From positions 1-22,001 of IMG/VR virus record IMGVR_UViG_3300048527_000084: a stretch of 22,001 bases of DNA; one strand, 5' to 3'. Position numbers and translations under genes: made by a program. The stretch's first letter is position 1; the number at the start of each line of letters is the position of its first letter. The notes beneath the pieces are model-generated. The model made no database searches. It was not told the origin of the DNA and was given only the letters and a program-made list of their open reading frames with translations. This DNA is from a virus. Below, in pieces: positions 3,083 to 3,231 of the stretch.

Positions 3083-3231
3083 GTTGCGATAAACACAGAT
3101 ACTTATGGCTCGCTGAAGGACGATGGTTCGATACCATCCTCTCTATTTTTATGGGGATGTAGCTCAGGGGTAGAGCGTCAGCATTTTAGACTGTGTTTTA
3201 TTTTCTCTATTTCTAATAAATTATTAGCAAC
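3083..3231 (+). ncRNA. Permuted tRNA-like domain, probable Y RNA of the YrlA type
   Basis: tRNA parts occur in the order 3' half then 5' half. From 5' to 3': GCTGA (3112-3116, like the 3' strand of an anticodon stem), AGGAC (3117-3121, variable-loop-like), a T-arm with GATGG-TTCGATA-CCATC (3122-3138), a capped acceptor-like hairpin in which CATCCTC (3135-3141) can pair with GGGGATG (3153-3159), TA, a D-arm GCTC-AGGGGTA-GAGC (3162-3176), G, and TCAGC (3178-3182), exactly complementary to GCTGA. The helix continues outward: ATAAACACAG (3089-3098) with CTGTGTTT-T-AT (3191-3201), then GTTGC (3083-3087) with GCAAC (3227-3231). The T-stem and the full acceptor stem share bases 3135-3138 and cannot both form completely. 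There is no anticodon loop, so it is not a translational tRNA. Bacterial and phage Y RNAs encoded beside Ro60 are known to carry tRNA-like domains. No terminator follows, so the RNA probably forms the leader of the Ro60 mRNA. Confidence 0.75.

What the first reader, a model, noticed from the sequence alone, without database searches (positions are those of the whole stretch)
3112..3182. Circularly permuted tRNA mimic: T-arm before D-arm, closed by an exact 5-bp anticodon-stem-like helix
The order GCTGA, AGGAC, T-arm (GATGG-TTCGATA-CCATC), capped acceptor-like hairpin, TA, D-arm (GCTC-AGGGGTA-GAGC), G, TCAGC is a tRNA with its halves swapped and its 5' and 3' ends joined by a loop. The outer helix is extended by ATAAACACAG/CTGTGTTT-T-AT and GTTGC/GCAAC. 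With Ro60 next door this fits a YrlA-type Y RNA. The T-stem and the full acceptor stem compete for CATC (3135-3138), so two conformations are possible.
Basis: partly seen in the sequence, partly recalled or inferred. Interest (0 to 1): 0.82.

Follow-up and report, generated by a model that had tools for sequence, protein, structure and literature searches.

The report
Phage Y RNA that mimics tRNA

Summary
Bases 3112-3182 form a T-arm, a capped hairpin and a D-arm closed by an exact 5-bp helix. A covariance model built from 35 relatives that excludes the window finds exactly 3112-3182 and nothing else in 22 kb (56 bits, E about 1e-16). The helices co-vary in relatives. Corrections: the outer stem is 3070-3083/3207-3220, not GTTGC/GCAAC, and the proposed T-stem/acceptor switch is not supported by relatives. 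Additions: a second Y RNA without a tRNA domain at 2933-3016, a promoter-like site before it, and a perfect 19-bp hairpin between the two RNAs whose 3' arm doubles as the 5' arm of the second RNA's outer stem. The likely function, tethering a partner such as host PNPase to the Ro60 ring, is inferred from bacterial work. New member of a known kind; modest interest.

The parts
2898..2926 (+). sigma-70-like promoter TTGACA-17-TATTAT with TG before the -10, just upstream of the first Y RNA
   Evidence: 11 of 12 consensus positions, but 2.3 weaker sites are expected by chance in the region, so suggestive only
2933..3016 (+). second Y RNA (here Y1), without a tRNA-like domain: outer stem ATCTTCAG/CTGAAGAT, Ro60-box internal loop, inner stem AGAAACGG/CCGTTTCT, small head
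   Evidence: fold z -4.85, 0 of 200 shuffles; carries the best Ro60-box of the whole window (24.8 bits); shares a 25-nt direct repeat with Y2
2940..2962 (+). 5' Ro60-box of Y1, GTGGCGAAAGAAACGGTTACTTA
   Evidence: top-scoring of about 44,000 window positions with a weight matrix trained on other loci
3016..3082 (+). perfect 19-bp hairpin (3016-3034/3064-3082) between the two Y RNAs; its 3' arm also forms the 5' arm of the Y2 outer stem
   Evidence: duplex -23.9 kcal/mol for the hairpin against -13.4 for the Y2 outer stem
3070..3083 (+). 5' arm of the outer stem of Y2 (the tRNA-mimic RNA)
   Evidence: pairs with 3207-3220
3083..3105 (+). 5' Ro60-box of Y2, GTTGCGATAAACACAGATACTTA
   Evidence: second-best position of the window (11.4 bits; next best 5.9)
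3091..3098 (+). inner stem AAACACAG, pairs with 3191-3198
3112..3116 (+). 5' strand of the anticodon-stem-like closing helix, GCTGA
   Evidence: exact pairing with 3178-3182; position co-varies in relatives
3117..3121 (+). variable-loop-like AGGAC
   Evidence: 5-nt spacing shared with relatives
3122..3138 (+). T-arm GATGG-TTCGATA-CCATC
3140..3157 (+). capped acceptor-like hairpin UCUCUAU-UUUU-AUGGGGA
   Evidence: not flush with the T-stem, unlike most relatives
3162..3176 (+). D-arm GCTC-AGGGGTA-GAGC, preceded by TA 3160-3161
3178..3182 (+). 3' strand of the closing helix, TCAGC
3191..3198 (+). inner stem CTGTGTTT
3199..3206 (+). 3' side of the Ro60-box internal loop (TATTTTCT), in the place where relatives read TGTTCCC
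   Evidence: by position
3207..3220 (+). 3' arm of the outer stem of Y2
3257..4780 (+). Ro60 / TROVE protein, 507 aa
   Evidence: Pfam PF05731 E 8.7e-12; phrog_850; 33-42% identity to viral Ro60s

Best explanation
This is a phage-encoded YrlA-type Y RNA (about 3070-3220) that partners the Ro60 protein encoded just downstream. Shown by sequence: a long stem made by the RNA's two ends, with a conserved box in it, and a head that is a tRNA without an anticodon arm, with T-arm and D-arm in swapped order because the RNA enters and leaves through what would be the anticodon stem. Inferred from work on Deinococcus and Salmonella: the phage Ro60 ring grips the end stem while the tRNA-like head docks a partner, most likely the host's 3'-5' exonuclease PNPase, so that structured or damaged RNA is fed through the ring; the D- and T-loops may be modified by host tRNA enzymes. 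A second Y RNA without the tRNA head (2933-3016) would occupy the same Ro60 site and perhaps gate or store the ring. Both RNAs are probably co-transcribed with Ro60 and cut apart, perhaps by RNase III at the perfect hairpin between them. The confidence given is for the identity as a YrlA-type Y RNA; for PNPase as the partner I would put about 0.5.
For: Covariance model of relatives hits only 3112-3182. Rfam YrlA matches full length, 32.3 bits, E 2.9e-5 in 451 nt and 0.0014 in 22 kb. Ro60 is the next gene. Same module beside Ro60 in 46 of 89 viral and 60 of 80 bacterial loci. Covariation: 91.9% of cells paired against 65.2% (sd 1.3) shuffled; 188 doubly changed cells against 64. The closing helix at the exact tRNA offset pairs 3.20 of 5 in viral modules against 1.97 (sd 0.12) with shuffled partners; five other offsets were tried and, apart from the one that is the same register moved by one pair, are near chance. 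Ro60-box weight matrix trained without the window picks the two Y RNAs as its top two positions. Papers describe YrlA with D, T and acceptor arms, a basal stem that binds Rsr, and PNPase tethering (PMC8394870; PMC7790460), and note Y RNAs in phages (PMC7765460; PMC12282133).
Against: Rfam score is below the curated cut-off of 69, although the other Ro60-linked phage modules found here also score only about 26-50. The acceptor-like hairpin is not flush. The closing helix is the weakest helix in relatives (74.9% paired). The Y2 box is weaker (11.4 bits) than the Y1 box. Expression, Ro60 binding and the partner are untested, and the host and its PNPase are unknown.
Confidence: 0.93

Rival explanations
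1. A true circularly permuted tRNA gene, whose transcript is joined into a circle and reopened to give a working tRNA.
For: The halves, rotated, are recognised as a tRNA by ARAGORN.
Against: The closing helix does not end in an anticodon loop: its strands run on into a conserved box and a long stem shared with a non-tRNA RNA. The capped end lacks CCA. Relatives keep the layout beside Ro60. The anticodon loop in the ARAGORN test was supplied by me, so the test shows shape only.
Confidence: 0.02
2. A YrlA-type RNA whose main job in the phage is to act as a tRNA decoy against host tRNA-cutting nucleases or to occupy tRNA-modifying enzymes, rather than to tether PNPase.
For: Phage setting; a competitive-inhibitor role of the YrlA tRNA-like domain towards an anticodon nuclease has been proposed for Salmonella (PMC7790460).
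Against: No anticodon arm is present for an anticodon nuclease to cut; the paired Ro60 gene and the plain second Y RNA point to a Ro60-centred function. Not tested.
Confidence: 0.15
3. A degenerate remnant of a tRNA or of two adjacent tRNA genes.
For: T-arm of one tRNA followed by the D-arm of the next gives a similar pattern; the descriptor caught a few such cases.
Against: No tRNA is found in the window by ARAGORN; the closing helix is exact and co-varies at a fixed offset in relatives; native order is never recognised as tRNA (0 of 142).
Confidence: 0.01

Closest known systems
YrlA (Y RNA-like A), Rfam RF02553, as in Salmonella
   Same: Same order of parts (end stem, T-arm, capped acceptor-like arm, D-arm, end stem), same conserved GTTCGA and TAGCTCA..GGTAGAGC, next to a Ro60/Rsr gene.
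   Different: Scores below Rfam's cut-off; phage-borne and AT-rich; acceptor-like hairpin not flush; the RNAs lie upstream of Ro60, with no rtcBA repair genes in the window.
Y RNA arrays beside phage Ro60 (Brevundimonas, Caulobacter, Rhizobium, Xanthomonas phages and many IMG/VR contigs)
   Same: Several Ro60-boxes in a row, only some followed by a tRNA-like head: 233 boxes on the gene strand, 7 on the other, 49 with a clear T..D head.
   Different: The window has just two, with a perfect hairpin between them.
Circularly permuted tRNA genes of algae and archaea (from general knowledge)
   Same: Swapped order of tRNA halves.
   Different: Not a tRNA: no anticodon loop, no CCA, conserved Ro60-box stem instead.

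Membership tests
YrlA-type bacterial Y RNA | tRNA-like domain with T-, acceptor-like and D-arms in swapped order | tested here: met
YrlA-type bacterial Y RNA | helices kept by compensatory change among relatives | tested here: met
YrlA-type bacterial Y RNA | long stem formed by 5' and 3' ends, with a box shared by other Ro60-linked RNAs | tested here: met
   the box is conserved in sequence, binding itself is not shown
YrlA-type bacterial Y RNA | encoded next to a Ro60/Rsr (TROVE) gene | tested here: met
YrlA-type bacterial Y RNA | score above the Rfam RF02553 gathering cut-off (a curation threshold, not a biological feature) | tested here: not met
   32.3 bits against 69; the Ro60-linked modules of other phages scored about 26-50
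YrlA-type bacterial Y RNA | binds Ro60, is modified by tRNA enzymes, tethers PNPase | not testable with these tools
   reported for bacteria in PMC8394870
Circularly permuted tRNA gene | anticodon loop present at the permuted ends | tested here: not met
   3099-3111 and 3183-3190 lead into the Y RNA stem, not an anticodon loop
Circularly permuted tRNA gene | circular intermediate and a CCA-ended, aminoacylated product | not testable with these tools
   needs RNA from infected cells

The most novel reading that the evidence does not exclude
The perfect hairpin at 3016-3082 and the Y2 outer stem share one arm (3064-3083), so the two structures exclude each other. The tRNA-mimic Y RNA could be held unable to bind Ro60 until the hairpin is cut, for instance by RNase III, making assembly of the phage Ro60 particle depend on RNA processing.
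Probability: 0.12. Interest if true: 0.45.

Novelty: new member of a known kind. Interest (0 to 1): 0.25.

Why it matters
It confirms by an independent route that a tRNA mimic with swapped halves is a normal partner of phage Ro60, here in a T4-like phage with Ro60 set between its SbcD- and SbcC-like genes. It also shows that phage Ro60 loci usually carry rows of Y RNA boxes, most without an obvious tRNA head, many of which Rfam's cut-off would miss. A model built from phage members would find them.

Tried and rejected
A single-sequence Ro60 query found almost no relatives (3 in viral contigs, none in bacterial genomes); the alignment query worked. Rfam microRNA matches to 3016-3082 reflect only a long perfect hairpin and were dismissed. 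An intrinsic terminator called at 3122-3138 is the T-arm. GTTGC/GCAAC as outer stem was rejected in favour of 3070-3083/3207-3220. The T-stem/acceptor switch was rejected because relatives keep the T-stem. Whether a shared outer-stem arm is common in relatives was tested: upstream pairing stronger than the stem's own 3' partner by 5 kcal/mol occurs in 1 of 58 modules, not the window's (that script's upstream stretch and 14-nt arm do not take in the whole of the window's hairpin, for which one search gives the figures). The core papers on bacterial Y RNAs (Chen 2014, Wang 2018, Sim and Wolin 2018, Sim 2020) are not held, so they are cited only through papers that quote them.

Full report
Observation. 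The sequence at 3112-3182 is as described. ARAGORN finds no tRNA in the window and Rfam gives nothing at its gathering cut-offs, but a permissive search of 2850-3300 gives a full-length match to YrlA, RF02553, at 3092-3200 (32.3 bits, E 2.9e-5). Over the whole window this is the best Rfam match (E 0.0014).

Relatives. The downstream gene is a Ro60/TROVE protein. An alignment of it with nine phage and viral Ro60s was used to fetch 80 viral and 80 bacterial loci, joined to annotated phage regions. A search for a T-arm followed by a D-arm found the module in 46 of 89 viral and 60 of 80 bacterial loci. A stricter version with a closing helix gave no match on the reverse strand and none in shuffled sequence. 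Adjacent true tRNAs can imitate the pattern and were filtered with ARAGORN.

Is it really a rearranged tRNA? With selection made on T- and D-arms only, the closing helix at the exact tRNA spacing (5-nt variable region, 1 nt after the D-arm) pairs 3.20 of 5 positions in viral modules against 1.97 with shuffled partners, 0 of 500; four of the five other spacings tried are near chance, and the fifth is the same register moved by one pair. Put back into tRNA order, 122 of 142 modules are called tRNA, the window's among them; in native order none is; with halves mixed between modules a mean of 32.6 are. The anticodon loop in that test was an arbitrary insert, so it tests shape only. On an alignment of 35 modules without the window, 91.9% of cells pair and there are 188 doubly changed cells against 64 by shuffling. 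A covariance model from that alignment finds only 3112-3182 in the window, 56 bits, E 9.5e-17.

Anatomy beyond the finding. In relatives the tRNA-like head is preceded by a conserved box, roughly GTGGCGTAGNNNNNGGTTACTTC, and followed by a pyrimidine-rich TGTTCCC, inside the stem made by the RNA's ends. I call it the Ro60-box because of where it lies; binding is not shown here. A matrix of the 5' box trained without the window puts two window positions on top: 2940 (24.8 bits) and 3083 (11.4 bits), the next being 5.9. The first lies in a separate structure at 2933-3016 (z -4.85) that shares a 25-nt direct repeat with the second. So the window holds two Y RNAs, one with and one without the tRNA head. 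Rows of such boxes are usual: 233 on the gene strand of 89 viral loci against 7 on the other; 49 have a clear tRNA head by a simple pattern, which undercounts. With the outer stem included, the tRNA-mimic RNA folds in the family layout (z -3.8); a shorter segment that cuts the outer stem does not stand out.

The hairpin between the RNAs. 3016-3034 and 3064-3082 are perfectly complementary. The 3' arm also pairs with 3207-3220 to make the outer stem of the second RNA, so the two cannot form together. Alone the hairpin is stronger (-23.9 against -13.4 kcal/mol). An RNase III cut is a natural guess for how the RNAs are separated, but this is inference.

Mechanism. In bacteria the basal stem holds the Ro60-like ring, the tRNA-like head binds PNPase, and DusA and TruB modify the head (PMC8394870; PMC7790460). 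Applied to the phage this is inference: a phage Ro60 particle that redirects host RNA decay or RNA quality control. Papers on a Vibrio jumbo phage and a Listeria phage already discuss Ro60 homologues and Y RNAs in phages (PMC7765460; PMC12282133), so the kind is known.

Setting. Neighbouring genes match a late sigma factor, an SbcD-like nuclease, an SbcC-like ATPase (by AAA/SMC domains and position), a sliding clamp, a clamp-loader-like AAA protein, a helicase loader, a single-strand binding protein (weak) and a B-family DNA polymerase, a T4-like replication block. Two further IMG/VR contigs carry an identical 1,000-nt stretch upstream of Ro60.

Noticed in passing
window 10418-13147: Ribonucleotide reductase large subunit interrupted by an intein with a LAGLIDADG homing endonuclease.
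   Followed up: no
window 3016-3082: Perfect 19-bp inverted repeat between two Y RNAs; TACTTCTAATAAA (3016-3028) recurs with one mismatch at 3208-3220, so both compete for the same arm.
   Followed up: partly
L007 673-740, L015 1266-1340: Features annotated as tRNA-Gln and tRNA-Ser in phage records overlap Y RNA modules and may be misannotated Y RNAs.
   Followed up: no
window 3257-4780: The window's Ro60 has an insertion of roughly 75 residues after about position 345 of the protein that most aligned phage Ro60s lack.
   Followed up: no
window 16602-19091: 829-aa ORF on the minus strand with no Pfam or PHROG match, rich in K, N and Q in its first half.
   Followed up: no
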